DNA from: Toxorhynchites rutilus septentrionalis | Taxonomy: Eukaryota; Arthropoda; Insecta; Diptera; Culicidae | Assembly (NCBI RefSeq): GCF_029784135.1 | Contig: NC_073746.1 | Coordinates: 254,227,994-254,291,993 of the forward strand | Length of the DNA: 64,000 bases | Direction of reading: 5' to 3' | Shown: piece by piece, positions 1,975 to 62,076 of the stretch | How positions within the stretch are numbered: the first letter of the stretch is position 1 | Layout: each line of letters begins with the position of its first letter | Translations under genes and position numbers: made by a program | The notes under the pieces: generated by a model | Databases searched by the model: none | What the model saw: the letters and a program-made list of their open reading frames with translations, nothing else | What the model was told of the DNA's origin: nothing

Positions 1975-2447
1975 CCGGATGGCCGATATCATCTTGCACG
2001 CTCTTTTTCCTTCTTCGCCCTCATGCGATAAGGAACAAACTTGGCTAATTGCCGTCAATTGAAATGTTCTAGTCTGACGCATTAGAACCGAAACAAACAA
2101 GTGCAAGATGTTATTTTTGTTTTTCCTCTTTCTTATCAACATCTGGTTGAAAAGAACCTAAACTTGTCAAACGTATTTATCGTTCGCCTAAGCTGAGTCA
2201 AAACATAAGCCGCTTGGGTTTGTTTATTGAAATTGCTATGTGCCTCTTCGCATTGCATTCAAGTAGTGCAATAAATCACGCGTTATCTTCTAAGCTAAGG
2301 AAGAGAAACAAGTCCCTTTTCGCTGGTATTGATTGTTTACATCTGTTTTGAAAATGCGCCTATCGCGCTGCATATTTATTATGCGCTTATTTGTGTTTGA
2401 AATAATTTTTATTACCGGCTATCTGGGTCCGTAACACTATTATTTTT
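1975..2447 (-). repeat. BEL/Pao-type LTR fragment
   Basis: This stretch closely matches 11025-11337, with shared blocks around CTTCGCCCTCATGCGATAAG, a TTGATTGTTTACATC segment and the terminal CTGGGTCCGTAACA. On the minus strand it begins TGTTACGGACCC, like the larger LTR copy. It is diverged and lacks the other LTR end, so it is a truncated relic. No gene lies in it. Confidence 0.6.
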
Positions 2448-2985
2448 AAAAAATAATGAAAGCTTATGTTTCTCATACGTGATATTATCACTACGGAATA
2501 TTATTTTTGCAAATAATAAATATTGAATATCTTTGGAGTCGTCATCATATGACCAAAGGTCGCATGAGTGCGAAAAAATGACTATGATAATCACTGTAAA
2601 TTCTTTTTAAGTTGAGTGCGAAAAAATGACTATAATAATCACTGTAAATTCTTTTTAAGTTCTATTTCTATTATTTTTGAAAAAAAAATAATGAAAGCTT
2701 ATGTTTCTCATGCGTGATATTATCACTACGGAATATTATTTTTGCAAATAATAAATATTGAATATTTTTGGTGTCGTCATCGCATGACCAAAGGTCGCAT
2801 GAGTGCGAAAAACGACTATAATAATCACTGTAAATTCATTTTAAGTTCTACTTCTATTATTTTTGAAAAATAATGAAAGCTTATGTTTCTCATGCGTGAT
2901 ATTATCACTACGGAATATTATTTTTGCAAATAATAAATATTGAATATTTTTGGAGTCGTCATAATATGACCAAAGTTCGCATTGA
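2448..2985. repeat. Satellite variant, short (~180 bp) monomers
   Basis: About three degraded monomers share the core of the 285-bp satellite (GTGATATTATCAC, ATGACCAAAGGTCGCAT, the 3' TTCTTTTTAAGTTC). They lack the roughly 105-bp block from GTGATTTCTTTC to CAATTCGTTGAAAC and carry GAAAGCTTATGTTTCTCATG instead. A fragment of the same variant is at about 62170-62258. Confidence 0.8.
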
Positions 2986-3136
2986 GATATGCCCTTTACG
3001 AATGGCATATTCGGATTTCGGATTACTGATATACGCATCGACGTCTGTCACACGAATGTATTTCTCTTACCAAATAACTTACGAGCTAAGTTCGCATGAG
3101 CGCATATTACATGTTTATTATTGTTATTATTGTTGT

Positions 3137-3367
3137 TTACGACAAGCGTCGAGCGGGGCGGTATGTTATTGTTGTTAGTTGTTGGAGGTTGTGTACAGGG
3201 AAGTTTTCTAGTTTATTTTTCTGTAGTCGTAATATTTTTTTATATTCTGCAAATAAATCGTTGAGTACTTCTATTTTTCCTTGTATTCCTTCCAGTAGCC
3301 TTGGTCTTTTCCTGTTTTTTTCAGGTTTGAATGTTCCTGTACCAGAACTGCTTCTATTTCCTGAAGC
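3137..3367 (-). pseudogene. Open fragment next to the small membrane ORF, no start
   Basis: A 76-codon open stretch between TAG (3368-3370) and TAA (3137-3139) has no Met. It is Lys/Arg/Glu-rich, with a KPEKNRKRPRL stretch followed by a possible helix. It lies downstream of the small membrane ORF at 3555-3797 on the same strand, the position where the intact gypsy element carries further leader ORFs or gag. It may be the remains of such an ORF; nothing identifies it firmly. Confidence 0.22.
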
Positions 3368-3554
3368 CTATCCATCTGCAGAGAGCATTTTCTTTCGTAA
3401 TTATTAACGCAAATACCGCTACGTAGAGTTTTTATTTTTCATTTTGTTTTTCTCTTGGCGCATTTAGTTATAATATATGTAGCTCGTATGATAGTGTATA
3501 TAGTAATGAGAGAAAAAATAATTTGGTTATTTCCCCTTTTTATTTTTGAGTTAT

Positions 3555-3797
3555 TTATTTTCCATATCCTTTAGGGGGTGGCTGCATTTGCCTTGCTGCT
3601 TTTAAAGCTTCCGCCCGTGCACATGTTTTATAAATCTTGTAGAGTTTCGCTATAGTAGCTACTATCAAGATCACTAAAATTATCCAGAGTATTATTTCCT
3701 GGTTCGCGTGCATCTCTGTGTGGTGTTCCACATGGTTCAGGATCGTGACCTGTGGATCACCCTTATTTTCTATCTTCTGTGAGCTGAATATTCCCAT
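3555..3797 (-). CDS. Small single-pass membrane protein of an LTR element (80 aa)
   Basis: The ORF starts MGIFSSQK in good context (AAAATGG), has a polar, His-rich segment to about residue 33, then a strong membrane segment (about 34-52, rich in Ile/Leu/Val) followed by LYKIYK and a basic/Ala-rich tail with RAEALKAA, ending in a Pro/Gly-rich stretch. The MG-x-FS start, single membrane segment and basic C-terminal side match two 64-aa ORFs at 18219-18413 and 55216-55410. The latter is the first ORF of an intact gypsy element. By analogy this is an accessory leader ORF of a retroelement whose gag and pol are gone here. The positive charge after the membrane segment predicts the C-terminus on the cytosolic side. 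No database family is claimed. Confidence 0.55.
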   Translation of the reverse strand: MGIFSSQKIENKGDPQVTILNHVEHHTEMHANQEIILWIILVILIVATIAKLYKIYKTCARAEALKAARQMQPPPKGYGK

Positions 3798-4524: not shown

Positions 4525-5397
4525 TTACAACATTGTATCTGCTATGGCCTCTTGTTGCCTAGTTATACGATGTATTCGGACGGCCCGGTTGTTCCTTGAT
4601 CCCGTTCTCCTTCTCTGTCCAGGCGCTGGCACTGGGGTCAAACGATACGATTTGAAAGGTGCATTACGAGCGTTTAAATTCAAACACTCTACGCAGTAGT
4701 GGAACGCCGATGCAAGAGATTGGGGTTTGTAATTATTGCAGAATAAAGATAATGGTTCTCCTAGACCTCGGATAAACGTATCTGGGGCCATCATATCGTA
4801 TCATTTAATTAGAGCGGCTTCATGCCCTTTCCATGTTTCATCGGTAGAGATGGCTGAACTTATAAGTGTAACTTTTTCGCGCACTCTACTGTAGTAGAGA
4901 TCAATTGATTCGTGTTGTTTTCTAACCATCGCTTTTAATTGATTATCGAGTGTCATGAGGTCACGTTTGTCAGCATAATACAAACGTAAGACCTCTTTGA
5001 TTTCATTCCAGTCAGTCGGTGTGTTGTTCGATACCAAAATGTCATTTGCCTCGTTTCTAATTTTCCGTCTTACGGTTTTTAAAATCAGGTGGTATACGTA
5101 GCTATTTCTAAAGTCGTTAAAAAGTTCGAGACAATCTTCCACATCGAGAATCCAGGTGAATAATTCTCGTGCATTTCCGTTAAAATCTGACAAATTATTT
5201 ACTATATTTTCTTTGTCCAAGAAACTAACAGAGGTGTAAATAGAATATAGTTGCGTTGCCTGATGTTGTTCGGGAGCGGAAGGTGCTTCCCTGAGGATTA
5301 GGCGTGCGGGTTTCAAAATTGGATTTTGATTTTCCATTTTAAATGAAGGGTATTGGGGAATTGGGATGCTCACTTCACTTTCACTTTTCGCTTTCAC
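4525..5397 (-). pseudogene. gag: Errantivirus-like Ty3/gypsy gag, broken by one stop
   Basis: A gag-type structural ORF encoding the capsid precursor of a gypsy-class LTR element. The first 198 codons show the gag hallmark of gypsy elements: a FNGNARELFTWI core motif followed by a helical capsid-like region to about residue 190. One in-frame TGA (4801-4803) interrupts it, and the same frame then continues for another 92 codons to 4525 with a basic, Arg-rich tail. Start choice is open: Met1 at 5397 or Met21 at about 5337. A tRNA-Lys-type primer site lies 400 bp upstream at 5798-5815. No protease or RT follows, so the element is gag-only here. The break could be decay or a base error; readthrough is unlikely in a copy lacking pol. 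Confidence 0.72.
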
Positions 5398-5797
5398 TTG
5401 CTTTCAATTGCTTTCAATTATTTACCTTTTGTTTGTTTACGTTAGTAGCACTTTAATTGTGATATTTCAGCGGGTCGCTTACGAGTGGTCCGGGTTCGCC
5501 TCTGTGTAAAGGGTTATAAGTTTCAACACTATCCGCAAGCGGCGTTGTTTTATTCTTAATATAATTCCTTTCGTGGTTTTTTATACTCACGGGACAACGC
5601 CTCGGTCCTGGAAAGTCCTATTAAGTGCCGGTTGGTTCGGGTTCTCTTTTCCTGGTGTACTCCTTCACTTTGCTCCTACGCGCAAGTCCGTCAGTTGACG
5701 ACAGATGGAATTCGGGTCCGGGGTAGAAGTAACTTAGAGCAAGTTAGCTCGGAGCGGCTTTACTACTTCAGCAGCACTATCCTATTACCAAGTTGAG

Positions 5798-8164: not shown

Positions 8165-9852
8165 TCAATTAATTTTATTGATTTTTGTGGAAATTCTTAA
8201 AACTATTTTCCACACAAAGGGCTGGCTTCTCTTTGCAAACTGGACAGAAATAACGCGTTTCTCGGCGTTTTTTTGCTTGGGTACATATACGACAAGGCTT
8301 TGTTGGGCGCTCTTTTTTTCGGTAGGTGGCAAACTCTCTAAATAATGTAGCTCTTGCAATTTAATTTTTTCTGAAACTGGTTGAATTTCTTCAGCAATCA
8401 ACGCGATGAGGAAATCTTCTCTGAACTTTATTAGTTTTACGTTAGAAGAAGTAACTTTTTGAAACATTTTGTGAGAATTGTGTATATATATCTCTATAAT
8501 ATGTAATGAAACCTTTTTGGGCCATCTAATACTCTTTCTTAGAGATGAGTAGTATGAAAGCATTTGGTCTGATCGGTCTATGCCAGACATTCCATTATTG
8601 TAATCTCGTATTATATTCGGTTTCATAGAAATTTTTCCATTGCGATTACAGACCTCTACCATTTCAACAGCATGCATGTTTGAAATACTAAGGACATCTC
8701 GTTTGTCCTTCCATTTGCATACAGTAACGGGTCCATTTTGCTGCCAAATACACTCCCCTTTTTTCAGCTTGCGATTTACCACATATCTGGGATTTCCTTT
8801 TCTATTACTTCGTAGGGTTCCACAAACATAAGTTTTTCGTGTAGTTAGCAGTTTTGTTAGAGTAACAGAATTATAAAAATTATCCATGTACACTGCGTAT
8901 CCCTTATCCAGATAGTCCTCCAGTAAATGTAAAACAACGTCAGCAGTGTGCCCTACTTTATTATCAGTTTCCTCACATTTTCCGCTATAAATCTTTATTT
9001 TCATGACAAGACCGTCGGACTCACATAGTTCATACAGTTTGATACCATATTTGTGTTTTTTATTTTTTATATATTGGCGGAAAAGCAATCTTCCTCGCCA
9101 TAGCATCATGGATTCGTCAATACAAATATTTCTATCTGGTACATAGCTTTCACGCATAACATGATTGAAATGATTTAGTATCGGTCTCACCTTGTATAAT
9201 CTGTCGGCAGATGGTATTGAGTTATAAACCAAATGAAAATAACGCAGTATCAACTGGAATCGATTTCGACTCATATGTGAGCGCCAAAAGTTTACATTAT
9301 ATAGCTTGTTTGTGCTCCAGTAATGTTCGATTGATGGAAAAGTGCAAGGTCCCATTTGCAACAAAAGTCCAATAAAAACTTTCATCTCTGCAGCACTGAC
9401 GTCTTTCCACTGTGATAACCTGTTAGTTTTTTTCTTACTTTGCGTTTTTCCATTTCTTGCGCAACATATAAATTAGTTTGTTCCACCAGTAATGCAAGAA
9501 ATTCATCCGAAAAAAATAAGTCCACCAGCGTATGTACCGTAAAATTTGCCGTATCCAATTTCACACCAATATTTTCTTGGAAAATAAATAATTCAGGATT
9601 TTGTTGAATTTCTGTCCACAAATCATCATTCGCATTTGATGTTGTTGTTTGAGAATCATCGTGATTATCTTCAGGTTCAGGATCAACTTCACATTCGGAG
9701 ACAACCATATCTTCACTATCACTTGAATTATCAGAAGGTTCATAATCACTACTATCGTTATCATCCTCATCAAACATCTCGTCAAATTCTGAATCACTGA
9801 GATTTGCGTAATACTCCATTTCATTTTGAGTCAGTGATCTTTTCTTTTCCAT
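8165..9852 (-). pseudogene. piggyBac transposase with two frameshifts
   Basis: The N-terminal frame (9852-9382, 156 aa) has an acidic, Asp/Ser-rich head typical of the family. A one-base shift in a run of seven A near 9428 moves the reading into the second frame (from 9385), which holds the RNase H-like core: IDESMMLWRG with the first catalytic Asp (about residue 90 of that frame), YMDNFYNS with the second (168) and GMSGIDRSDQM with the third (270 or 273). A second one-base shift, again in seven A, near 8320 displaces the C-terminal cysteine-rich zinc domain; its CxxC pairs are readable in the other frame and stop at 8175-8177. The enzyme catalyses cut-and-paste transposition at TTAA. Both shifts would be cured by one extra A each, so base-call error in homopolymers is as likely as decay. 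Confidence 0.88.
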
Positions 9853-10027
9853 ATTGGGTTCTTGATGATTTAATTACAACAATAATTATAAAACAAAACA
9901 CTCAAGAGGAACGTAAATGTGATGTACTCGACAAGTTCTGCAGCACTACTGATGAAATATGATGAAATATGCACGCGTATCTATGATTCAGAGATTAGAG
10001 AAGCGACAGGTAGAAACGTGTCTGTGC

Positions 10028-12042: not shown

Positions 12043-13054
12043 TTAACAAAAAAAATATTCCGATGTGGTTTTGATGAAATCTCGAGCTTTTCGGCGAGTA
12101 CCACTCATCATAGTTTGGACACCCTGTTCGCTGACCTCAGCGGCCATTTTGTTTTACCATCTCTTCATCTCTGTTGCATCCCGAGTCGTCCTACCATACT
12201 TCTTCATCTTCTGCTTGACAATTGCCCAATATTTTTCAATAGGGCGGAATTGAGGGCAGTTGGGTGGGTTGATGTCCTTATCGACAAAATCCACCCCGTT
12301 GTCTCGATACAACTGTAGTACCTCTTTGCTTGCCAAATCTGGCCAAAACTTTACTGGTCCTTTGTGAGATCTAATGTACGGAAGAATACGTTTTCTCAGG
12401 CACTCCTTCTTGTACATTTTGGAGCCCATGGCCTTGTTTGTCACAAAAACCGGGGTTTTTCGTCCGCAGCTGCAAATACCTTGCCAGATCAAACACTTTC
12501 TTGCAAACTTATCGGCAAAAACGAATTTGAACTTGCCGGGGACATCACCCCGACCAGTGGCTTTATAATATTTTTGGCCTGGAAGCTGCCCAAAATCCAT
12601 CTTCACGTACGTTTTGTCATCCATGAGGATGCATCCGTCGTACTTCGTTAGAACCTAGTTGTATAACTTCCGGGCACGTCCTTTGGTTAGTACATTCTGC
12701 TTCAATGTCCGGTTTGGTTGCTTACTGGCCCGATAAGATCGTATTCCTTCGCGCAGACGAATCCTTCTGACGGTGCACCGGTCGGCATTGAATTTCTTGG
12801 CGATGTCATATTCCGACTGCCCTGGGTTTGCCTTGATCGTTCTCAACACCTGCACAATGCAGTTTCCGATCCTTAGTTCCACTATGACGCTTGGTATGAA
12901 CCTGCCGATCGATAGTATGCATCTCACGGAAACGTTTGATAACGCTGCACACGGTCGATTTGGCCATTTTCAACGATTTGGCAATTTTTGAACCTGACCA
13001 CGTCGGGTTTTTGACGTGGGTGTCCAAAATTAATTTTCGTTTAGCGGCTTCCAT
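12043..13054 (-). pseudogene. ITmD37E-type Tc1/mariner transposase, decayed
   Basis: The transposase starts MEAAKRK at 13054 with a helix-turn-helix DNA-binding region, shifts frame near 12860, and continues with a second helix-turn-helix and RASKQPNRT. It is then cut by TAG (12655-12657) and TAA (12154-12156) before ending at 12043. Catalytic motifs are visible: LMDDKTYVKMDF (first Asp), FWPDLAS (second Asp) and NPPNCPQFRPIEKYWA (Glu). Only 33 residues separate the second Asp from the Glu, where the mosquito ITmD37E family has 37; the four residues normally after DLAS (CHY plus one) are missing. The enzyme would catalyse cut-and-paste insertion at TA. No terminal inverted repeats were found, so both ends are probably lost. 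Confidence 0.88.
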
Positions 13055-13097
13055 CACGTGTAACTTTTTTGAAACAAAACGAATCGTTGTGGTGCCA

Positions 13098-13374
13098 GCG
13101 GTCTCCGGCACTGGTTTTTCCCGGGAATGAAACGACGCGCCCGGCGCGGTACGAGTTCTGAGTATCAATTCCTCGAGCCTGACCGACTCGAATGCTTTTA
13201 TTAAACTTTAAGTTTACAATTTTTATTTTCTTATTTACTAATACAAAATGTGGCTCGCGCTCGAATCGTGCACACATGTTCCCGTGGTGCTTACTTTGCG
13301 CGAGCCCCGTTGTATTACTAAAATGGGCCAAGTTCACCATACGCGGAACTAATTAAATCAAATATTGGGCGCTG
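13098..13374. repeat. Fragment of the 6358-6862 LTR family
   Basis: It shares CGGCACTGG, GCGCCCGGCGCGGTA, CTCGAATGCTTTTATT and ATACGCGGAA with the solo LTR at 6358-6862. The left side abuts the mariner relic and the right side joins the satellite at TGAAAATACTG without a target duplication. Confidence 0.6.
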
Positions 13375-17496: not shown

Positions 17497-17739
17497 CTCC
17501 CAACAAACAAAACAGACGGTGAAATGACGGAGATACGGTTTCGAGTTATATCCTTCGGGTCGTTAAAACAGTAAAACACAAATGAACTTCACAATTCTGC
17601 GATGTAGACAGGTCCAATTAAACAGTCAACGATGAAAACAGATTAAAATATTACAGTCAAACTAGTAAAAAAACAAACTTCCAGCAGACGAAATACTAAG
17701 ATGCTATTTGTTTTTGTTTACATGTTGTTCATCTTCAAA

Positions 17740-43146: not shown

Positions 43147-43149
43147 CTA

Positions 43150-48854: not shown

Positions 48855-48867
48855 TTTACTAGTATGG

Positions 48868-49449: not shown

Positions 49450-49775
49450 CCATCCCTCTTTGGGAGAATGATGTAACCGGGTGGAATCATTTATTATTAT
49501 TATATTCATTATTATTGGGTGTTATAGCTTCTCCTCTTACATATGGTTATCTAACTATATTTACAGGTTGTGATAAATTCGTAAATTTAATTATATAGTG
49601 TATTTAATTTATAATAGTTTTAATTTGTTCTGTGATGCTTATTGTATAATATTTGTATTTAATGATTGTCGATAATTATGATGATAATAACAGTGATGAT
49701 TTTAATAATAATTATAATTGGGAAATAATTGAGTAAAAATGAACTTAATCTCTGATACGTACCAAATTTCTAATA

Positions 49776-49787
49776 CCCCCTTCCCCC
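49776..49787 (-). other. Second polypurine tract after the pol stop
   Basis: GGGGGAAGGGGG on the minus strand begins within the pol stop codon TAG (49787-49789) and lies about 330 bp before the LTR-proximal tract. The truncated relative has GGAGGAAGGGG at the same place (about 40323-40333), so the position is conserved between two diverged copies. Confidence 0.55.
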
Positions 49788-52700
49788 TAACGGAGGAGGG
49801 AATTATAAGTAATTAATCTATTTTTATGTACAGTATGAGTGTTTTGGGTTTTCTCATCTAATAATGTCGCGTTTGGGTGATTTATTGATATGACCTTGTA
49901 TGGTCCTTGATATACCTTGTCTAGTTTTCTTCTGTTTTCGTTAGTCATCATAACTAAATCATTCTCATGTATTTGTATTGGGTTTGTATCTTTCTGCTGA
50001 TCTTCACGACGCTTTTGTTTGATTCTGTCAATTATTTCTTTTGCTGATTTTGTTGCCGTTTTGAGTTTGAATTGTAATTCTTTATGATATTGCTCGATAT
50101 TGTATACGGGTTCAATGTGTGATTTTAGGTTGTATGGCAGTGTTGCGTTTCTGCCGAAAACTAATTCAAAAGGTGTGTATGAAAAATCTGTATGCGGAGT
50201 GGTGTTGTAACAGAATGCGTAGTAAGGCAACCAATCATCCCAGTCGCTCTGCGATGGGTTGATGAATTGTCTCACGTATTCATTAAGACAACGATGGTTT
50301 CTTTCTAAACTTCCGATTGATTGCGGGTGATAGGGGGTAGAAAATTTTTGTTGAATTTGGAGTAATTTTGAAATATTGTCAAATAATTCATTCTTGTATT
50401 CGGTTCCTTGATCAGTTTGAACAATTGACGGAGTACCGTATACGAGAATGCAATTTTCTATAAATGCTCTCGCTATTGTGGATGCTTGTTTGTCTGGGGT
50501 TGGTTTTATTATTACGTATTTGGAGAGGTTACATTGGATAGTTAATGCATATCTATTTCCTGAATTAGATTTGTTAAAAGGTCCGATAGTGTCAATAGAT
50601 ACACAATCAAAAGGTTTTTCTGGGGTGGGTATTTTTATAAAGTTTTCCTTGGTCGGGGTTTTGTGTTTATTTTGTTTGCATTGTATGCAATTTCTAACAT
50701 ATTCGTAAATTTCTGATTTCATTTTGCTCCAGGAATAGAGTCTACTGAGCTTTTTATATAATCGATTGGCACCTATATGTCCTCCAATTGGTGCATCATG
50801 ATAATTTTTCAGGATTTTTAATTTTTCTTCTTGGCTTTCTATCACACGCTTGGGTGTGTAGAGCACTATTTGCAAGTCTTTTAGCGAGTCGTTACAAGTC
50901 TTCTTGAAGAATTGAACGCTGCATAATTGGAATATCACGCTTGATAACGCTAGAGCTATCGCGCTTATTCTTAATTTTTTGGCCATATTTTCAACTTTCT
51001 GTAATAGATTCCCTAAGGTCTCTTTCGAGTTGCTTGCAATTTTTGTATTTGTCGACATTAATTCTTTGAATCCTGTTTTATTTTTAATTGCGCATTTCAT
51101 ATTATTAAATTCATTCTCGCTAGCGTTTTCATTATCTTCGAGTGCGCGTCCGCATTGAAGTTTGGGTAGTTTTTCCCATTCGGTTGGTTCAACTGCCTCG
51201 TATACTTTGAGTTGATCAGGCTCATTGACATCGAGTACAGTGTTATTATTCAAATGTTCGTATTCCGTCTGATTCATATTTTGTTCTTTTCTTGTCATTG
51301 CTCTCGTTTGAACGGCTAGGACGTTTATTGTTTTCAAAGTTTCAGAATCAATTGCTATTCGTGATAATGCGTCGGCAGTTACGTTTAGTTTTCCTTGTAC
51401 ATATTGTACGTCAAAATTAAATTCCTCTAAATCTAGTCTCATTCGTGTTAATTTGGAAGATGGATTCTTCATTGAAAAAAGGTAAACAAGCGGTCTGTGG
51501 TCTGTTTTTACCGTGAATTTTCTTCCGTATAAGTATGGTCTAAAGAATGTTATTGCCCAATGAATGGCAGTAAGTTCCTGTTCAATTGTTGATTTATTTG
51601 CTTCACCTTTGGTGAAGGCTTTACTTGCGTAAGCGATCGGTAATTCGATTCCATCGCAATCTTGGGCCAATACTGCGCCACAGGCAGTCTTTGATGCATC
51701 GGTTATTAGTGTGAATTCTTTTTTAAAATCGGGAAATTGTAAAATTGTGGGAGAAATCAGTGCTGATTTTAAAGAATTGAATGCTTGCTGACATTCAGAG
51801 CTCCAATCGAAGACTGCATTTTTTCGAAGGAGTTTGTTTAAGGGATGCGCAATTTGGGCAAAATTTTTAATAAATCTTCTATAATAGTTGCAAAAAGCAA
51901 CGAATCGACGGACTTCATCCGATGTGTTTGGTGTAGGGTAATTTAATATGACTGAAAATTTTGATTTATCTGGTTGGATGCCAGATGCGGATATATTATG
52001 ACCTAGGTATGTGACATCTGGTCTAAAGAATGAGCATTTTGCGGGGTTAAGTTTCAAATTATATTTTTGGAGTTGTTTAAAAACTTTTTCCAAATTACTT
52101 AAATGATGATTTATGGAACATCCGACTACTATAATGTCGTCAATGTAAAGGAAAGCACACTCTGGTGGTAAGCCGCTGAGTGCAATTGTCATCATTCTTT
52201 GGAAGCTGTTTGGGGAAATATTTAATCCGAAAGGTAGTCTATTGAATTCGAAATGACCGTTTGAAGTAGAGAATGCTGTTAGTTTTTTGGAATTTTCGTC
52301 AAGTTCTATTTGGTGGAAACCTGACATTAGGTCTAGAGTAGTAAAGTATTTGGCTCTTCCTAAATGATCGAGTATTTCATCTATTCTTGGAAGGGGAAAT
52401 TTATCTGGTGTAATTTTTTTGTTGAGCTGGCGAAAGTCTACCACTAATCGCCACTTTTTATCTTGTGTATTAGATTTTTTTGGCACTAAAAGTATAGGGG
52501 AATTATATGGAGAGGTTGATGGTTGGATGATTCTATTTTCTAACATATTTGATATTTGTTTATTTATTTCTGTTATTTGGGCCTCTGGAGTTCGATAATT
52601 TTTTATGTAGACGGGGTTTTTGTCGTTGAGTTGAATGTTTTGTTTATAAAAGTTGTTGGTAGTTAAGAAGTCATCTTTTAAAGCGAATATTTCGTTATAG

Positions 52701-53422
52701 TTTCTGCAGAGATTTATCAGTTTGTGTTGGGCTTCACGGGGAGTGTTAGTTAGATTTAATTCTTCAGTTAATTTTGGTATACGATTAGGGTTGTTAGTTG
52801 TGTTGTGGTTGATTGTAAAATGTGTTAACGGTTGGGTTAGTGGCTTGAAATTTTTGGGTAGAAGTATTTCAGACGTATTGGTATTAATGATTTTAACGAA
52901 TTGTGTTTTAGAGTTAACTATGGAATTTGCGCAAAATACTCCAGGTTTGATTTCTTGAGAAATTATGACAGTGTCTTCTTTTATATGTGGAATTTTTATT
53001 TCTTTGATAATCTGGCATCTGGGGGGGATGACTAGATGATCGTCCCATGTGTCATGGATCGGTACTTCTAGATTAGTCTCATTGAAGAAAAAGGATAGTA
53101 ACCATGTCTTCAAACACAGATTACATTCATATTTTGTTAAAAAGTCTTTTCCTAGAATGCCGTCAGCTGTAATTGGGAATTGTTTATTCACCAAATGGAA
53201 TTGGTGTGGAATTTTATTATTTTCTATAAGTAGACTAGTGTTGGTACTACCTATTGTTTCAAGTTTGCCTTCGGTCACGCCGTTTATTATGCATGTATTA
53301 TTTTTGTTAATTTTCTGGGTACGTTTGATCAAATTTTCCTTTAGGATTGATATATCTGCCCCTGTATCAAGAATAAGAACGCATGGTTGTTCGCACATGC
53401 TTAATTTAACTATAATAAACAT
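49787..53422 (-). CDS. pol: gypsy pol polyprotein (1211 aa)
   Basis: Domains in order: aspartic protease with LILDTGADIS (DTGA at 19-22); RT with WRLVVDFRQLN (about 324-334), TTLDLMSGFHQI and YIDD (426-429); RNase H with ITDASKTACGAVLAQ (Asp 575) and TDHRPLVYL; a linker; the integrase zinc region (GHIGANRLYKKL, CIQCKQNK, about 880-918); the integrase core with Asp944, Asp1004 and Glu1040; and a C-terminal region ending HTVHKNRL. These process, copy and integrate the element. The frame is -1 relative to gag and is open upstream of the first ATG through the end of gag, so synthesis by -1 frameshifting is likely. A hydrophobic stretch near 818-835 (ISAIALALSSVIFQLCSV) is also present in the truncated copy. 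No damage seen. Confidence 0.95.
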   Translation of the reverse strand: MFIIVKLSMCEQPCVLILDTGADISILKENLIKRTQKINKNNTCIINGVTEGKLETIGSTNTSLLIENNKIPHQFHLVNKQFPITADGILGKDFLTKYECNLCLKTWLLSFFFNETNLEVPIHDTWDDHLVIPPRCQIIKEIKIPHIKEDTVIISQEIKPGVFCANSIVNSKTQFVKIINTNTSEILLPKNFKPLTQPLTHFTINHNTTNNPNRIPKLTEELNLTNTPREAQHKLINLCRNYNEIFALKDDFLTTNNFYKQNIQLNDKNPVYIKNYRTPEAQITEINKQISNMLENRIIQPSTSPYNSPILLVPKKSNTQDKKWRLVVDFRQLNKKITPDKFPLPRIDEILDHLGRAKYFTTLDLMSGFHQIELDENSKKLTAFSTSNGHFEFNRLPFGLNISPNSFQRMMTIALSGLPPECAFLYIDDIIVVGCSINHHLSNLEKVFKQLQKYNLKLNPAKCSFFRPDVTYLGHNISASGIQPDKSKFSVILNYPTPNTSDEVRRFVAFCNYYRRFIKNFAQIAHPLNKLLRKNAVFDWSSECQQAFNSLKSALISPTILQFPDFKKEFTLITDASKTACGAVLAQDCDGIELPIAYASKAFTKGEANKSTIEQELTAIHWAITFFRPYLYGRKFTVKTDHRPLVYLFSMKNPSSKLTRMRLDLEEFNFDVQYVQGKLNVTADALSRIAIDSETLKTINVLAVQTRAMTRKEQNMNQTEYEHLNNNTVLDVNEPDQLKVYEAVEPTEWEKLPKLQCGRALEDNENASENEFNNMKCAIKNKTGFKELMSTNTKIASNSKETLGNLLQKVENMAKKLRISAIALALSSVIFQLCSVQFFKKTCNDSLKDLQIVLYTPKRVIESQEEKLKILKNYHDAPIGGHIGANRLYKKLSRLYSWSKMKSEIYEYVRNCIQCKQNKHKTPTKENFIKIPTPEKPFDCVSIDTIGPFNKSNSGNRYALTIQCNLSKYVIIKPTPDKQASTIARAFIENCILVYGTPSIVQTDQGTEYKNELFDNISKLLQIQQKFSTPYHPQSIGSLERNHRCLNEYVRQFINPSQSDWDDWLPYYAFCYNTTPHTDFSYTPFELVFGRNATLPYNLKSHIEPVYNIEQYHKELQFKLKTATKSAKEIIDRIKQKRREDQQKDTNPIQIHENDLVMMTNENRRKLDKVYQGPYKVISINHPNATLLDEKTQNTHTVHKNRLITYNSLLR

Positions 53423-53436
53423 TGAACAAGTAATAT

Positions 53437-54639
53437 TTAGGTTGAAAATATTTGATGTTGATTTCGGTTTTCCTCCTGTTCTTCGTCCGACAACGCGCGG
53501 AGGTTCGCAGCCGGGTTTTCGGAGTTTTCCGCAATTCTAATGAAATGTTGCGGTCTGTTGTAATAGTTTTGGCTGCCATTGCCCCTAAAGTTTCTGTTTT
53601 GGTTAGGGAAATTCTGTTGATGATATTGGCGATTTTGGTTAAAATTTTGGTTTTGTTGAGGTTGATTATTGAATCTACCACCTCTTCCTCTATAGTTATT
53701 AAAATTTCTACCACGATTGTTCTGGTTGAAACGGTTAGGATGCGGGTAGGGCGGTTGTCGCTGCCCGCGATTGTAAATAAGCACATTTGCTGATTTGGTT
53801 GTCAGCGATTTATATTTATTGACCTTCTCCACTGCGTCAGCTATGCTGGTGAAGGCTCCCGCACGTAATATAGTTTTTAATTCAGAGTTATCAATGCCTT
53901 CGATGAGGGCATCGATTCCTGCTTGGCAAGCGAGTTTTGCTGCTCGTTGCGGTGGTGTCTCTTCCTTGATGTGTAAGTCGATGAGTTGTTCGGTCAGCTC
54001 TTCAACTTCCTTACATAATTCGTCTGCTGACTGTTTTTTTATAGACTTCAACTTCGCTAATATGCTGTCGGCGCTAGTCTTTGATATACATGTAGTTTTT
54101 AAATTTGTTAGCAGTGAAGGTATATCCACGCTATTATTAATTGCTCTTCGGGCCTTTTTGTCGAGTCTGGTCAGTAGGAATTGATATACCAACGCTTTGT
54201 TTGCGCTGGGGGAGATCTCATTTAGTAGTGTGGCTGCACTGATGAACATATCGAGTCCATCAGGTGAGCCGTCGTAGATTGGCACCATTGCGGCTGCCTC
54301 TTTGTAATCGAATTTGGACATTTTCGGTTTTTGTATTCCAACAACGAACAATATCGCAAGAGCTACTTCTTTGAAAGATTTTTGTTTAATGATAATGTTT
54401 ATTTTATTTCTAATATCTTGATATATTAGATTAGCATTTTCGGCAAGCAATAACAATTCTTCAGCCTCTTTATTGTGTACGAGAGGGTCTACTATTGTTT
54501 TAATATCTTCAGCTAATTTTTCAGCTTCTGCGAGCTTGGTTCTCAATGTAGCTTTTCTTAACTTTTTAGTTTGCTCGGATCGCAGTGATTTTGCAATTAC
54601 TTGTAATTTCTGTATTTTGTTTTCTATTAAACTTGCCAT
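53437..54639 (-). CDS. gag: gypsy gag protein (400 aa)
   Basis: This structural protein forms the particle and packages element RNA. The N-terminal 110 residues are helical and Lys/Glu-rich; a capsid-type region follows (about 110-275, with VPIYDGSPDGLDMFI and repeated helices). The C-terminal 110 residues are Asn/Gln/Arg/Gly-rich (GRNFNNYRGRGGRFNN) in place of a CCHC zinc knuckle, so RNA binding probably uses the RG-rich tail. The ORF ends 14 bp before the first ATG of pol, which lies in the -1 frame. The start at 54639 is the first ATG of the open frame. A long T-rich tract on the plus strand (54730-54790) separates it from the leader ORFs. Confidence 0.9.
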   Translation of the reverse strand: MASLIENKIQKLQVIAKSLRSEQTKKLRKATLRTKLAEAEKLAEDIKTIVDPLVHNKEAEELLLLAENANLIYQDIRNKINIIIKQKSFKEVALAILFVVGIQKPKMSKFDYKEAAAMVPIYDGSPDGLDMFISAATLLNEISPSANKALVYQFLLTRLDKKARRAINNSVDIPSLLTNLKTTCISKTSADSILAKLKSIKKQSADELCKEVEELTEQLIDLHIKEETPPQRAAKLACQAGIDALIEGIDNSELKTILRAGAFTSIADAVEKVNKYKSLTTKSANVLIYNRGQRQPPYPHPNRFNQNNRGRNFNNYRGRGGRFNNQPQQNQNFNQNRQYHQQNFPNQNRNFRGNGSQNYYNRPQHFIRIAENSENPAANLRALSDEEQEENRNQHQIFST

Positions 54640-54814
54640 TAAATTAAAGGCGAAAATTTTTTTTTATTTCTGTTTTTGTTGATGTCTACAACAAGTAGTC
54701 TTACAGCTTAGCACATATTTTACATGAACATTTTGTGTTTTTTTTTTTTTTTTTTTCATTAACAATTTTTACTTCAAAAATTTTTTTTTTCATATTTTAC
54801 ATCTTATAATTGAC

Positions 54815-55063
54815 TTACCATCTCTGTCGGCGGTATCCTACTACAGTATCAGTAAGGCTGAGCTTTGTGAAAGGTGTCACATAGATGGTTGCTCCATGGA
54901 TGTCTTCAATTTTGATATTGAAACCTCTTTTCGGCTGCTTCGGGTGTTGCTTCCTATATTGCCGCCATCCGATTTTTTCCACTAATGCGATGTGTTCCGC
55001 TTGGGCCTCCGCCTGGGCCAAGATGTCCTTGATGTTCTCGTTCCACATGTTTAGTTTTTCCAA
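54815..55063 (-). CDS. gypsy leader ORF 2 (82 aa), unknown role
   Basis: The ORF starts MEKLNMWN, has an acidic/Ala-rich helix (residues about 8-30), then a basic segment RQYRKQHPKQPKRG and a compact C-terminal part ending GYRRQRW. It lies between the membrane leader ORF and gag in an intact, recent element. No membrane segment or known domain is seen. The coding status is inferred from length and context. Confidence 0.5.
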   Translation of the reverse strand: MEKLNMWNENIKDILAQAEAQAEHIALVEKIGWRQYRKQHPKQPKRGFNIKIEDIHGATIYVTPFTKLSLTDTVVGYRRQRW

Positions 55064-55215
55064 TGGTCACTAGTTCGTGTAATGAGTTTCTATTGGTTCG
55101 TTCACATGGGTGGTTAGCACAGTTCCGTTTATTAGTTCACTTTGGTCTAGTTGGCACGTCTTCGTTGATTAGTTCACTTTGTTCAAATTTTGAAAAATTA
55201 GTTCACTTCTGCCCT

Positions 55216-55410
55216 TTATACCTGGTTGAGCTGTGCCGCTCTCACTGCTCGGGAGGCTACTCTCTCCGAGTGATTCTTATAAAACGTGTGCATTAACCGC
55301 ACAACACCGTAACCTAACGCAGCACCAGCAAGGATGCATAAAGCAATCGTTTGCGGTGAACTCGACACTGGGGCGCTCGACACTATCTCGTCTGCCGAGA
55401 AAAAGCCCAT
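55216..55410 (-). CDS. gypsy leader ORF 1: small single-pass membrane protein (64 aa)
   Basis: This is the first ORF of the intact element, 87 bp after the primer site. It starts MGFFSADE in strong context (AAAATGG), followed by a Ser-rich segment, a membrane segment (about 20-39, TIALCILAGAALGYGVVRLM), then HTFYKNHSER and RAVRAAQLNQV. It has the same length, start motif, layout and LN..V end as 18219-18413, and is similar in design to 3555-3797. Charge distribution predicts the C-terminus in the cytosol. Function is unknown. Possible roles are targeting of particles to membranes or a reduced envelope-like or ion-channel-like role, none shown by sequence. Confidence 0.65.
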   Translation of the reverse strand: MGFFSADEIVSSAPVSSSPQTIALCILAGAALGYGVVRLMHTFYKNHSERVASRAVRAAQLNQV

Positions 55411-55466
55411 TTTTGAACGTTCACTGTTTCGTCAAAACAAAAAAAATTGTTTGGTTTCACTCATAG

Positions 55467-55497
55467 CCGAAGATTCAGGCTAAAGTCTCGGTCGCCA
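55467..55497 (-). promoter_or_regulatory. Primer-binding site, tRNA-Arg type, with extended tRNA similarity
   Basis: On the minus strand the LTR ends TTCCACA and TGGCGACCG follows, complementary to the 3' end of tRNA-Arg(UCG). Read on the plus strand, the next bases resemble the tRNA further inward, with gaps: CCGAAGATT, CAGG, AGTC, CGGTCGCCA in that order. This suggests that an ancestor copied the tRNA as far as the anticodon stem. Confidence 0.6.
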
Positions 55498-56079
55498 TGT
55501 GGAAGGTTCAACCCGATGTAGTATACAATTTCTATCACTTTGGGGCACTTGTGATATATTTCGGAATGAAAGAACTCAGGCACATTCCACTAATATAAAT
55601 ATCACTATATTCTTAGTTCCGTCCTCGCGTGCATTCGACACTTGTTAACTTGATTGGTTGGAAATGTAAAAAGACCTCTTGCTTGCATTCGACATGTACT
55701 TTTTATAATGCTTAAACTAAAACTCTACACAAGGTAGCTTCTATTCTAGAGGAGGAGGAGCCAGCAAGGAAATATGTGAGCGCGTTCGATTGGTTCGAAC
55801 GGGTCAATACGGAGAACAAAAGGGTAGTGGTTGTTTCTGTGTGTTGTCATTTCACACTTGGTTGAAGTGGGTTAGTTCTGCATAATGTTACGCTGCAAGG
55901 GTGAGTGGTTGTTATTTAATATTATCGTATGCAGCTGTGAGCTTGTGACATAAAAATGCATTTGGCCTACAAACATGTATGACGATAATTTATGGCGTGG
56001 GAATGAATTTGTGGGAATAGGATCGTTGGGATTTTATGACAAGTGGGAAAGGATAATGGTAATAGGTTATCCCGCTACA
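55498..56079 (-). repeat. 5' LTR of the intact gypsy element
   Basis: 582 bp, apparently identical to 48868-49449; promoter and polyadenylation functions are expected within it. ATGG (56080-56083) follows. Confidence 0.95.
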
Positions 56080-56777
56080 ATGGCATTTTCTAGCATTAAT
56101 AACACTTCACTTTTACTTTTTCAAATACAAAAATATTCTCTTTATTTAAATAAAAAAGAAAGGCTTCGCCTTATAATAATTAAAAAAAACTCCACGCGAC
56201 TGTTCGCGCCGAGTTTGTCTCTAGAACTAACTTAATATTAAACACGAAAGTCTTAAGCTAACCTTTTACAATGATTGTGTAGAGTTCTTTCTTTAATTCG
56301 TTGGGAGGAGCCAAGTCATAGAGAAATATCCAATCAATCGAATGCAGTGTTCGATGTGATTGGGGTCAAGAATAAAAAATGCTTACTGCGCGTAAGCGCG
56401 CATATCGCATAGTGCATATCGATTTCATGGGAAATCGTAAAGTGTTACGACTTAGTAAACTGTTGCGTATTTCATCGGAACAGAACTAAGTATGTTTTGG
56501 TTTAGATTTATTGCCATCAACTGCGCGCGGTATGATGTAAGAATGCATTCATACCGCTAGCGCATGTGGCTAGTTTTTATGGGTGATGGATATTTGTGGG
56601 AGAAAAGTAATTAACGAAGTTATGCAGTTATGCTTGTGGGAATCGTAAACATTGAAGTGCTTGCGCATGAGTCATTCGTTAGAAAACAATTACCTGCTTA
56701 TGGAAAAAATGGAATTTGGAATGAGTTTTGAAATGGATTAGGGATCGGGTTTGAAATGTGTTTGAAATCATGCTACA

Positions 56778-57410
56778 CATGAGTGCGAAAAATTGACAAC
56801 ATAAATCACTGTAAGTTCTTTTTAAGTTCTATTTCTATTATTTTTGAGAAATAAAATATTACCACTGTGATTTCTTTCAAATTCTATTTCAATTTTTTTG
56901 CCGAATTTATTATCAATAACTACTGAAATTTCTCTATATATTTCTATTTACAATTCGTTGTAACTTTAATTTTTAACGCGTGATATTATCACTACGGAAT
57001 ATTATATTTGAAAATACTGAAAATGAATGTCTTTGGAGTCGTCATCATATGACCAAAGGTCGCATGAGTGCGAAAAATTGACAACATAAATCACTGTAAG
57101 TTCTTTTTAAGTTCTATTTCTATTATTTTTGAGAAATAAAATATAACCACTGTGATTTCTTTCAAATTCTATTTCAATTTTTTTGGAGGAATTTATCATC
57201 AATAACTACTGGAATTTCTCTATATATTTCTATTTACAATTCGTTGACACTTTAATTTTTAAAGCGTGATATTATCACTACGGAATATTATTTTTGAAAA
57301 TACTGAAACTTGAATGTCTTTGGAGTCGTCATCATATGACCAAAGGTCGCATGAGTGCGAAAAATTGACAACATAAATCACTGTGAGTTCTTTTTAAGTT
57401 CTATTTCTAT
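56778..57410. repeat. 285-bp satellite, about two monomers
   Basis: It resumes at CATGAGTGCGAAAAATTG and ends at TTTCTAT, where a CTAT-duplicating LTR inserted. Confidence 0.93.
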
Positions 57411-57858
57411 TGTGGAATAGTGGAGGCTTTGTGATATAGAAAGAACGACGTATCTAGATGTCTCATCATGACTGTGACTCGCCGTAAGTGTTCGCTTAAA
57501 TACTAGTTTACATTTACTTTCCTTAACTTTACACAAAACATTCCTTATTGCTATTACTGGGCGGAGCATCTCACCAGTAGGGTAAATTAGAAAGAGATAG
57601 CGCAAGCGTGGCTTAAGTGGGTCATAAACATAACATCGGACACTTGCGCTGTGTGGCTAAACATGTAGCTACAAGTGTCGTGTTTATTTATGGTGCTTGA
57701 ATGTTATTCCATCGGTCGTAAAGCGTATAGCGGGTGACTAATACTTTATGACATGTGGTTTAACGGGGGTTTGGGAAATTGGATAATTGAATTTCACTAA
57801 GTGTGAAATGAGATGAAACATGCGTGGGAAAGGAGAATAGATTAAGGATAATGCTACA
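57411..57858. mobile_element. Solo LTR, CTAT duplication
   Basis: 448 bp from TGTGGAATAGTGG to GATAATGCTACA, flanked by CTAT (57407-57410 and 57859-57862); the satellite TTCTATTATTTTTG is restored on excision. Related to 46300-46805. Confidence 0.88.
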
Positions 57859-59196: not shown

Positions 59197-59313
59197 ACTG
59201 TGATTTCTTTCAAATTCTATTTCAATTTTTTTGAGGAATTTATCATCAGTAACTACTGGAATTTCTCTATATATTTCTATTTACAATTGAAATTATTATT
59301 TTTAAAGCGTGAT
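59197..59313. repeat. 285-bp satellite, partial monomer
   Basis: About 117 bp of monomer up to AAAGCGTGAT, cut by the BEL LTR. Confidence 0.88.
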
Positions 59314-61477
59314 TGTAAAATATCTAAGGGATCTATTTCCCCTAGATGCTTGCTTAGCAAGACTTTTCTCTTATGGGCTAAGCCCCTTCCAAAATTCCCG
59401 TAATCGCGAATATGTTTCAGTATCAAACGGCTCCAGATTGGTCCGTCCGAGTGAAACTCGCAACTACTTTCGAGTGGAAAATTTTGGGTAGTTCTTACCC
59501 TGGTTTGAACTCCTTCCCTGTTAGGAGTTCTTGGATTCCTGGTGGCTGGATCGTGCTGGTCGTCCTTCTGTGGTGGATTGTGATAGTCCTCCTTCTTGGT
59601 GGATTTTCGGATTGGAAATGACAAGTCGTTTTGTCAATTCCTAGTGGACATGATGTAAGAATGCATTCATACCGCTAGCACATGCTGCTAGTTTTCATGG
59701 GTGAATGTGGGGGAAAAGCAATTAACGAAATTATGCAGTTGTGCTTGAGGAGTATTTCATGGGAAACGTAAATATTGAAGTGCTTGCGCATGAGTCATTT
59801 GTTATGAAACAATTAACTGCTTATGGGGAAGAAGGAAAATTAATTTATTGTTAGTTTAAAAATGGGATTTGGAAACGAATAATCAAGTTTGAAATTTAAC
59901 TGTATTTCTAATTTAAAATAATCTGGTTGTTGAAATTGAAATTGAACAAACTGAACGAATTTGAACTTAAAATTGCACTGAACTGCTACGCAACAATCCC
60001 GAGTTAATTTACCCGAAATTCTTACTCAGCCTAAATCTGTGAGGGAGAAAAAAGATCTCCCTTCCCTTGGTGATAACTGCATGCTGTCTCGCTAGAAGGG
60101 TTCATTTAGGAACAGGTTTAACTACCTAACTATTGGCTAATTGCAGCAAGAATTCCTATCTAGGGGAAGTGGGGGCAAAGTGGTCACCCTAAGAAACATG
60201 CCAATTTCCAGCGTCCACATACCGCTTCAATTCCCGTTTCTCGAAGAATATTACAGTTCAACTCATTGTTGTTCAAGATAGCAAACGACTTTTACTATAA
60301 AAATTCAAAATAGTACATTTTTCATCATTTTTCTAAAGGTGAAAAATCGAACTTTTTTTTTGCTTGGTGGTAAAGTGGTCAGCTAGTGGGGGCAAAGTGG
60401 TCACCCGCACATATCAAGCTAAATGGGATAGATTTATGCGTTTTTTTCATCCAAATTTGCTCAAAACATATTTGATATAATAGGTACATTTATGAAATAA
60501 GCTTGGCCTATTCACCTAGAGTCTCAATTAAAATTTTCTTATGCATACAAAAACGTAGTAAGAAAATATAACGTTCCGCATAATGAGGCTTGGTTTGATG
60601 GAGTGTCATATTTATCCAGGCTCAAAGCCAAAAAAGGATCCTCTTCAAGAGTAGTATGTGATGCTGATATATCGCTTTAGTAAACAGAACATTGTAAGTT
60701 GTTACTCGCTTATGACCACTTTGCCCCCAAATGTCAAAGTAATTTCTATGCTAATTGATCGCTGAGATTAAACAAAATATCTGTTCACCTCCTCTAAAAT
60801 ATGTGAACAGTCGTCCAAACTGATGATTTGTCCCACATATTAGTAGATTGAATAAACTAAATTTTACGAGAAATTCCTTAGGTACCATGCGCACAGAACT
60901 ACGGCCTAATGGTTACCGAGAGAGAGCAATTTCTGTTTTTATTTATATTTTGACATGCGACAGCTCTACTGAAGTACAGGGTGATTCAAAAGTCATTAAA
61001 TTCTTCAAACATATGGTGACTATCAAAACGGTTTCAATAGTCAATAGTTATACTACCAAACAAGCAGGTGACCACTTTGCCCCCACTACCCCTATACTTT
61101 TCTTGTCTAATCCCCACTGCGCTACCCGCGTGTGATTCCAAATAAACATTTTTGTTTCCTTCTCTGCCCTTCGCACTTATTCCATGCGCGATAAGGGGCG
61201 AGCTTAAATTTGGCTAATTGGCATCAATAAAATATTTATTATTTTCGTCTGGCGCCGCATTTTAGTTCCCTGATCCTACGTTCGCATGCTTCATAGCCAT
61301 GCGCTGTTTATCTGAAGCTTTACAAACAAATCGCAAGAAAGGAAACAACTGGGTTTCTTCCCGCCGGCTTTATTAGTCATTTGCGCTCGTTGCATTTTAT
61401 GTTCAATCCTGCTAAACTGGATTCGTAACTTTCCGGCCCTGATTAATCTACTTGTTCGATTTATAAAATCCTGAACA
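59314..61477 (-). mobile_element. BEL/Pao 3' LTR, interrupted
   Basis: It runs from TGTAAAATATCTAAGGG to AATCCTGAACA (minus strand TGTTCAGG...TTTACA) next to a BEL pol terminus at 61672-62076, the expected order for a minus-strand element. It shares long blocks with 7743-11337. A piece of the 43779-type LTR (about 59645-59890) and a TIR element (60160-61095) are embedded in it. Confidence 0.6.
60160..61095. mobile_element. TIR element (MITE-like) with repeated 16-bp motif
   Basis: The 936-bp element has about 28-bp inverted ends, TAGGGGAAGTGGGGGCAAAG at the left and its near-exact inverse at the right. GGGGGCAAAGTGGTCA occurs four times: forward at 60171 and 60388, inverted at 60713-60728 and 61069-61084. 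There is no transposase; a 95-aa plus frame (60848-61135) crosses the right end and is not a gene. A TA or similar target duplication could not be fixed. Confidence 0.75.
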
Positions 61478-61671
61478 GACCCTATACTACCTTTGTTTCT
61501 TATATGTAGGTTTGTTTACAATATTTCGGAGTTTTCCATTTATTTTACATTCAGTCATTCTTATGAGCTAACAAAGTTTAAAATCACTTTTATTTTCTTC
61601 GGCATGATACCTGGTTCCAACGGATGTCCCTTCAATGCTTGGTCCTTAGTTCGATTGACTCTGGCGCGAGC

Positions 61672-62076
61672 TTACTTCTTTTGGCTGCTTCTTTCGGATA
61701 TGACGCTTGGTTCGCAGCTTGTCCTCCTCAATGCTTGGTCCTTGATTCCATTACATCTATTGGCCGGATCATTTCCTTTGACTATGTCCAGCACTGCTAC
61801 TTTGACTGCTGGTCGTTTGAGGATTCCCTTTGTGGTTTGTATCTTCATTTGGCGAATTTGTCCATCTTTCGCCGTGTGGACTCGTCCTTTAAGCCATTTT
61901 CCTGGAGGTGCATCGTCATCCGTGATAAGTACGATGTCGTTGGCCTTGATTGGTTCTACCTTCCGCGTATTCTTGTTACGCTTCAAATGAGTTGGCAAGT
62001 ACTCCTTCCTCTATCGGTTTCAAAACAACTTGGAATAATGTTGAACGCGTCTCCATTGCGCTGTGTTAGTTACGGA
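61672..62076 (-). pseudogene. pol: BEL/Pao pol C-terminus (DUF5641-type)
   Basis: From about 62064: QWRRVQHYSKLF, then two in-frame stops where aromatic residues are expected, then EYLPTHLKRN. The DUF5641 core follows: ANDIVLITDDDAPPGKWLKG, then KDGQIRQMKIQTTKG, LKRPAVKVAVLD. This is the tail of the BEL integrase region. The last 108 codons are open to 61672. Plus-strand frames of 155-165 aa over the same stretch are its shadows. The rest of pol is missing. Confidence 0.85.

What the first reader, a model, noticed from the sequence alone, without database searches (positions are those of the whole stretch)
1975..62076. All orientable transposons lie on one strand: candidate unidirectional piRNA cluster
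Nine independent elements can be oriented by coding sequence or leader ORF: the gag relic at 4.5 kb, the element of the 3555 ORF, piggyBac, ITmD37E, the LINE, the remnant at 18 kb, the truncated gypsy, the intact gypsy and the BEL relic. All are minus. For random orientation the chance of nine agreeing is 1 in 256. The satellite also keeps one orientation throughout. Established knowledge: unidirectional piRNA clusters such as flamenco hold nested, mostly same-oriented elements antisense to cluster transcription. A plus-strand transcript across this window would be antisense to all of them, including a young, apparently active gypsy.
Basis: partly seen in the sequence, partly recalled or inferred. 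Interest (0 to 1): 0.78.

Follow-up and report, generated by a model that had tools for sequence, protein, structure and literature searches.

The report
One-way transposon locus with viral relic
In an elephant-mosquito genome, a stretch of roughly 235 kb holds mobile elements that nearly all point the same way, plus a captured piece of a mosquito virus gene; that is what a small-RNA defence locus would look like, although no small-RNA data were available to prove it is one.

Summary
The window is from the mosquito Toxorhynchites rutilus septentrionalis. From about -119 kb to at least +117 kb the count is 27 minus to 3 plus, 19:3 outside the window; further upstream it is mixed (5:9). Over all 260 kb of flank with no boundary drawn it is only 24:12 (p 0.065). 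The domain also holds an env-bearing errantivirus, two gypsies with identical LTRs, a chuvirus-type glycoprotein fused to gypsy pol, and a phasivirus nucleocapsid piece joined to a LINE that is identical, over 143 bp, to 39 other genomic copies. All are minus. The core's plus strand is T-rich. This resembles flamenco-like unistrand piRNA clusters and the reported 143-kb Aedes aegypti cluster. Transcription and piRNAs are untested; antisense bias in a giant intron, or chance, remain live rivals. Candidate new member of a known kind.

The parts
1..191 (+).
341..1553 (-). ORF of 381 aa (341-1486, likely first exon about 1531-1553) of a mosquito protein family of unknown function; convergent with the transposase at 1-191, so perhaps one two-gene DNA transposon; not counted for orientation
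3558..3797 (-). leader ORF of a gypsy element
   Evidence: 52% identity, 7e-19, to the leader ORF of the complete gypsy at -69982..-69770
4525..5403 (-). gag relic of an LTR retrotransposon
   Evidence: PF03732, 6.8e-4; 39-42% to gag of the gypsy at 65-71 kb
8165..9873 (-). piggyBac element; 97% DNA identity to a second copy at about -14.8..-13.1 kb, same strand
12154..13207 (-). Tc1/mariner-type transposase in pieces (reader: ITmD37E)
13631..17562 (-). LINE with two ORFs (endonuclease and reverse transcriptase in the second)
18222..18413 (-).
40323..43146 (-). truncated gypsy, 72.6% DNA identity to the intact one over 2.1 kb
48868..56079 (-). complete gypsy (gag 53437-54639, pol 49787-53422), LTRs 48868-49449 and 55498-56079 identical, ATGG duplication
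61672..62010 (-). BEL/Pao pol end (DUF5641)
19344..57411 (+). 285-bp satellite array, broken up by insertions; related pieces from about -50 to +60 kb
22302..31035 (.). near-exact tandem repeat of a 2495-bp unit inside the satellite

Best explanation
The window is the middle of a one-sided insertion domain of about 235 kb on C3, seeded in a satellite block, and most likely a flamenco-like unidirectional piRNA cluster read on the plus strand. Shown: nearly all orientable elements, an errantivirus with env and two virus-derived pieces are minus; the bias has an upstream edge between about -132 and -119 kb; the plus strand of the core is T-rich. Inferred: a plus precursor would carry them as antisense, U-rich RNA that is cut into piRNAs; insertions in minus orientation are kept because they silence their active relatives, while plus insertions give no such benefit and are lost.
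For: 27:3 in the domain and 19:3 outside the discovery window; scan statistic over the 324 kb 3e-5 under a fair coin, 3.4e-4 under shuffling; flanks alone 0.0038 and 0.0021. LTR-coding bases per 100-kb window are 20.2 kb minus to 0 plus (-125..-25 kb) and 12.8 kb to 0 (0..100 kb), the kind of signal by which Drosophila unistrand clusters were predicted and, where small RNAs were available, confirmed (PMC10643416, sections 7, 8 and 24 read). Env-bearing gypsy relative (PF07253) minus. Phasivirus N piece minus, one of 4 N places found in the genome, joined to a LINE part identical to 39 other copies over 143 bp. Three gypsies with LTR pairs 100, 100 and 99.6% identical are minus. AT skew of sequence that is neither annotated coding nor satellite is 0.000 overall upstream of -119 kb, between -0.03 and -0.12 in 12-kb bins from -80 to +88 kb, and 0.004 to -0.019 beyond. 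Background: 293 retroelement places genome-wide are 146:147, and pairs 7-250 kb apart agree 17:14. In Ae. aegypti 44% of virus integrations lie in annotated piRNA clusters and their piRNAs are mainly antisense (PMC5497376, passages).
Against: No small RNA, RNA or chromatin data. Over all 260 kb of flank 24:12 (p 0.065), all-flank retroelements 13:5 (p 0.096). A BEL/Pao element with long ORFs sits plus at -10.1..-4.3 kb in the middle of the domain; the four 100-kb windows that include it have 11.1-17.3 kb minus to 5.3 kb plus. The genome may hold about 125,000 such elements, so one block this one-sided is expected 0.01 to 0.3 times by coin toss (on slightly different counts, 29:3). Close pairs (7-50 kb) in the background agree 6:1, so short-range correlation is not excluded. 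The two LINEs measured are not T-rich on plus (27-28% T, 28-29% A), and two of seven bins of the upstream control are also slightly negative (-0.035, -0.023). In known mosquito flamenco-like loci transposon density was described as lower than in flamenco (PMC7919454, section 8).
Confidence: 0.45

Rival explanations
1. The domain lies inside a very long intron (or other transcribed part) of an ordinary plus-strand gene. Sense insertions with their poly(A) and splice signals are purged, antisense ones stay, giving the same one-way pattern without a piRNA cluster.
For: Antisense bias of transposable elements and endogenous retroviruses in introns of human genes is established (PMC3517506 and PMC1794541, abstract starts seen). 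It predicts the same strand, a T-rich plus strand and a stronger effect for retroelements (19:1 in the domain) than for DNA transposons (8:2) (recounted by hand from the list behind).
Against: No clear host-gene domain in 127 ORFs inside the domain (124 of the 155 listed plus 3 others; one search shows transposon domains, one SWIM zinc finger at 7e-5 and one DUF6470 at 7.5e-4) nor in 64 of 70 listed upstream (Transposase_1 and DUF4817). Exons under 85 aa were not looked at, so this is weak. That over 30 kb of satellite is unusual for a gene body is my inference.
Confidence: 0.25
2. Chance plus selection of the window: many windows were read and the one with agreeing strands was reported; neighbouring insertions and duplications inflate the count.
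For: All-flank count 24:12, p 0.065; genome-wide expectation up to 0.3 blocks; pairs 7-50 kb apart agree 6:1 in the background; segments repeated at -80/-66 kb and -63/-55 kb, which may be BEL LTRs.
Against: The flank, fetched afterwards, replicates it: 19:3 in the domain, scan p 0.002-0.004 for flanks alone, LTR flank 8:1. The elements are of many kinds (gypsy, errantivirus, BEL, several LINEs, piggyBac, pogo, Tc1).
Confidence: 0.22
3. Dual-strand or inactive heterochromatin: a satellite block that collects insertions, with no directional use.
For: Satellite pieces from -50 to +60 kb; some culicine piRNA loci hold satellite repeats and D. ficusphila has a dual-strand LTR-rich locus without orientation bias (PMC7919454 passages; PMC10643416 section 7).
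Against: It predicts mixed strands, which is seen upstream of -119 kb (5:9) but not in the domain (27:3).
Confidence: 0.08

Closest known systems
flamenco of Drosophila melanogaster and flamlike1-5 of other Drosophila (PMC10643416, sections 7, 8, 24)
   Same: 100-kb scale, LTR elements of the gypsy kind, one with env, on one strand, opposite to the presumed transcript
   Different: No piRNA, promoter or soma-expression data here; enrichment over the genome not measured; large satellite content; LINEs and DNA transposons also mostly share the strand; virus pieces present
Aedes aegypti 143-kb flamenco-like unidirectional cluster with non-retroviral EVEs (Aguiar et al. 2020; paper not held; described in PMC7601171 passages, and PMC7919454 section 8)
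   Same: Mosquito, similar length, transposons plus non-retroviral virus pieces
   Different: Synteny not tested; one clear non-retroviral virus piece (phasivirus N) plus a chuvirus-type glycoprotein fused to gypsy pol
Mosquito satellite piRNA locus (MCpiRCL) of culicines (PMC7919454, passages)
   Same: Satellite-rich locus in a culicine
   Different: Its conserved 29-nt piRNA is absent from the window with up to 3 mismatches; the flanks were not searched for it

Membership tests
flamenco-like unistrand piRNA cluster | Strong LTR strand bias over 100-kb windows | tested here: met
   LTR elements 13:1; windows 20.2:0 and 12.8:0 kb, but 11.1-17.3 to 5.3 kb in the four windows with the plus BEL element
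flamenco-like unistrand piRNA cluster | Enriched in LTR elements compared with the genome | not tested
   no genome-wide density was measured
flamenco-like unistrand piRNA cluster | Gypsy-family endogenous retroviruses antisense to the presumed transcript | tested here: met
   one errantivirus-like element with env PF07253, pol and LTR pair, minus
flamenco-like unistrand piRNA cluster | Lies outside centromere and telomere | tested here: inconclusive
   about 76% along C3; satellite block present, centromere position unknown
flamenco-like unistrand piRNA cluster | Abundant uniquely mapping piRNAs from one strand, 1U and phased | not testable with these tools
   no small RNA data
flamenco-like unistrand piRNA cluster | Single long precursor with a promoter at one end | not testable with these tools
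   no RNA data; only the upstream edge of the bias between about -132 and -119 kb is seen
Aedes-type EVE-bearing unidirectional cluster | Non-retroviral virus pieces antisense to the presumed transcript | tested here: met
   phasivirus N piece minus; chuvirus-type glycoprotein minus but fused to gypsy pol
Aedes-type EVE-bearing unidirectional cluster | Synteny with the Ae. aegypti locus | not tested
   coordinates and paper not held
Intronic antisense bias in a host gene | Exons of a plus-strand gene on both sides | tested here: inconclusive
   no clear host Pfam domain in the ORFs scanned; short exons not covered

The most novel reading that the evidence does not exclude
A flamenco-type locus in a predatory mosquito acts as a heritable archive: an active LINE has recently copied a phasivirus nucleocapsid mRNA by template switching and delivered it in antisense into the same one-way locus that holds antisense errantivirus and young gypsy copies, so transposon and antiviral piRNAs come from one plus-strand transcript in a lineage that does not take blood (feeding habit recalled, not from a call).
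Probability: 0.25. Interest if true: 0.75.

Novelty: new member of a known kind. Interest (0 to 1): 0.5.

Why it matters
A 2020 review called it unknown whether the Ae. aegypti flamenco-like locus is conserved in other culicines (PMC7601171, passage); a counterpart half its size was then reported in Ae. albopictus (PMC7919454, section 8). A candidate in Toxorhynchites, predicted from orientation alone and carrying a virus-LINE junction that looks young, can be tested with one ovary small-RNA library. It would show whether such archives exist outside vector mosquitoes.

Tried and rejected
Satellite orientation as extra evidence: set aside, tandem arrays are one-way anyway. ORF 341-1486 as a virus relic: not supported; 38 relatives, the named ones all from mosquitoes, no Pfam domain, model of pLDDT 77.6 but pTM 0.46 and no fold match at E 0.001 in PDB or BFVD. 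It is left out of the counts. Earlier count tables (rows 29:3 and 34:12; 28:3 and 21:3) held that ORF or double counts and are superseded: the 70-kb gag ORF belongs to the gypsy at 65-71 kb, and the 'LINE_D' ORF at -105 kb is a gypsy pol start (it matches five gypsy pols) apparently split from the rest by a LINE. The row 'DNA TEs domain 9:2' was typed wrongly by me: the list gives 8:2. Terminal inverted repeats joining the DDE_3 transposase and ORF 381: none convincing. Satellite piRNA of culicines in the window: absent. tRNA and Rfam scans of the window: nothing. Host genes by Pfam: nothing clear. The four N places as copies of one chimera: three of four end at the same profile position, but a 301-bp probe over our junction matches in full only here among the 40 candidates scored of 716, so no close copy of this junction was found. 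Genome-wide number of chuvirus-type glycoproteins and distribution of the satellite: not answered by the tool. The search for homologous proteins on residues 400-651 of the gypsy-glycoprotein ORF gave only pol proteins covering 15-27% of that region.
Full report
Where it is. The window is G000:C3:254227994-254291993 of a 902.6-Mb genome of 514 contigs, three of them large (206, 345 and 333 Mb). A protein of the window is 100% identical over 99% of its length to a record named for Toxorhynchites rutilus septentrionalis whose longest contig, 345355930 bases, has exactly the length of C2, so the species is that mosquito (taxonomy). Positions below are relative to the window; minus values lie upstream.

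The observation. The ORF at 3558-3797 proved to be the leader ORF of a gypsy, because a complete gypsy at -77..-69 kb has a 52% identical ORF (7e-19) between its 5' LTR and gag. The ORF at 18.2-18.4 kb has no such support. The intact gypsy has identical 582-bp LTRs and an ATGG target-site duplication. One plus-strand element was missed: the end of a DDE_3 transposase at 1-191.

The flank test. Elements were then called and merged by hand; after merging pieces of one element there are 44 orientable elements in 324 kb, 32 minus and 12 plus. Between about -119 and +117.5 kb the count is 27:3 (two-sided binomial 8.4e-6), outside the window 19:3 (8.6e-4), outside-window retroelements 13:1 (1.8e-3). 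The three exceptions are a BEL/Pao element at -10.1..-4.3 kb, the DDE_3 transposase at -0.9..0.2 kb and a Mos1-type mariner at 103.7 kb. Upstream of -119 kb the count is 5:9. The boundary was drawn after seeing the data: over all flanks the count is 24:12 (p 0.065) and for all flank retroelements 13:5 (p 0.096); a scan statistic that allows for the choice of segment gives 0.0038 (coin) and 0.0021 (shuffle) for the flanks alone and 3e-5 and 3.4e-4 for everything. LTR elements alone are 13:1 over the whole region and 8:1 in the flanks. DNA transposons in the domain are 8:2. The downstream edge was not reached.

Background. Of 300 retroelement places listed genome-wide for two Pfam families (only the best 150 candidates of each are scored), 293 on the large sequences are 146 plus and 147 minus. 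Leaving out our locus, pairs 7-250 kb apart agree 17:14, pairs 7-120 kb apart 7:9, pairs 7-50 kb apart 6:1. So there is no strong long-range agreement in general, while very short-range agreement cannot be excluded with so few pairs. Scaling the local density gives about 125,000 elements in the genome and 0.01 (separate blocks) to 0.3 (overlapping) expected blocks as one-sided by coin toss (run with 29:3 of 32). One such block by luck somewhere is thus possible, though not likely in a given window.

Virus-derived content. At -16.5..-15.55 kb an ORF on minus begins with a phasivirus nucleocapsid (Pfam Tenui_N 5.1e-20; residues 1-150: 65% identity to Hameenlinna phasivirus, 63% to Guadeloupe mosquito phasivirus). 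It runs from an apparent start codon for about 148 codons and then passes directly into the 3' part of a LINE (LINE protein from about residue 833 on). A 301-bp probe across the junction matches in full only here among the 40 candidates scored of 716; its LINE part, 143 bp from position 159 on, is 100% identical at the 39 other places. Over 1.7 kb the LINE part is 95.5% identical to the copy at -110 kb, so the dating rests on those 143 bp. A 5'-truncated LINE with the 5' part of a viral mRNA joined upstream, in the same sense, is what template switching by a LINE reverse transcriptase should give (inference), and the identity suggests a recent event. The genome search found four N places. At -35.1..-33.2 kb a gypsy pol match stops at -34484 and a chuvirus-type fusion glycoprotein (PF24664, 1.8e-16) begins at about -34497 in the same ORF. 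Chuvirus glycoproteins in mosquitoes are mostly associated with BEL-Pao elements, perhaps as envelopes (PMC7642597, passages), so this one may be a rearranged retroelement envelope rather than a free-standing virus relic. A gypsy relative with an env gene (PF07253) and a 414-bp LTR pair 96.9% identical lies at -28.9..-20.9 kb. All three are minus.

Other features. Satellite pieces (266 hits, 31.4 kb, all one orientation) spread from about -50 to +60 kb, so the core looks like a satellite block opened by insertions. Some elements appear nested in the same orientation, for example a LINE inside a gypsy at -113.8..-104 kb. On the plus strand the AT skew of DNA that is neither annotated coding nor satellite is 0.000 overall upstream of -119 kb (12-kb bins -0.035 to +0.028), -0.004 to -0.019 on to -80 kb, -0.055 to -0.116 in ten of twelve bins from -80 to +64 kb (the other two, from -56 kb, are -0.046 and -0.028), -0.037 and -0.029 on to +88 kb, and 0.004 to -0.019 beyond; part of this is LTR and leader DNA of the same elements. 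The four minus LTR elements measured are 36-39% T on plus; two minus LINEs are not T-rich (27-28% T, 28-29% A); the plus BEL element has 23% T. Recent Drosophila work says that antisense retroelement RNA is chosen for piRNA making by its high uridine content (PMC13226689, passages, citing a further paper), so a plus transcript over the LTR elements would have the right composition.

How it most likely works. A plus-strand transcript, starting near the upstream edge, would carry gypsy, errantivirus, BEL, LINE and phasivirus sequence in antisense and be cut into piRNAs against their active relatives. Keeping only insertions that help would produce the bias. None of transcription, processing or silencing is shown here. 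The same pattern is expected in a long intron of a plus-strand gene; no clear host domain was found in 127 ORFs within the domain or 64 upstream, which is weak evidence. That distinction may matter less than it seems, since antisense retroelement insertions in host-gene 3' UTRs also make piRNAs in Drosophila (PMC13226689, abstract and passages).

Known or new. Unistrand clusters were predicted in Drosophila from LTR strand bias in 100-kb windows and, where small RNAs were available, confirmed (PMC10643416, sections 7, 8, 24). A 143-kb unidirectional, EVE-bearing cluster is reported in Ae. aegypti (PMC7601171 passages and PMC7919454 section 8; the original paper was not held). In Ae. aegypti 44% of virus integrations lay in piRNA clusters, with mainly antisense piRNAs (PMC5497376, passages). 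A search for Toxorhynchites with genome and piRNA listed 8 papers, none on clusters by title (listing only). This is a candidate new member of a known kind.

Noticed in passing
L027:3503-4447 (-16497..-15553): Phasivirus nucleocapsid piece joined to a LINE whose part is identical over 143 bp to 39 other copies; the junction matches in full only here among 40 scored candidates of 716. Looks like a young case of LINE template switching onto a viral RNA.
   Followed up: yes
L025:4895-6847 (-35105..-33153): Gypsy pol broken off within RNase H and running in frame into a chuvirus-type fusion glycoprotein.
   Followed up: partly
window 341-1553 and -909..191: Convergent pair of a DDE_3 transposase and a mosquito protein family of unknown function with a small intron; possibly a two-gene DNA transposon.
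   Followed up: partly
window 22302-31035: A 2495-bp unit of satellite and other DNA repeated in tandem with only a few mismatches, so very recent or an assembly duplicate.
   Followed up: partly
window 3558-3797 and L022:18-230 (-69982..-69770): Small leader ORF (the window copy starts MG and has a hydrophobic stretch), between 5' LTR and gag of gypsy elements.
   Followed up: partly
L024-L025, about -49.9..-38.5 kb: Version of the satellite with copies spaced about 183 bp instead of 285 bp.
   Followed up: no
L020 (-87..-84 kb), L022 (-65 kb), L023 (-53 kb): Minisatellite open on the plus strand coding repeats like QYFLFPIR.
   Followed up: no
L010, L013-L016, L027: Six Tc1-type transposase copies, five of them 91-95% identical in protein to the first, in both orientations.
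   Followed up: no
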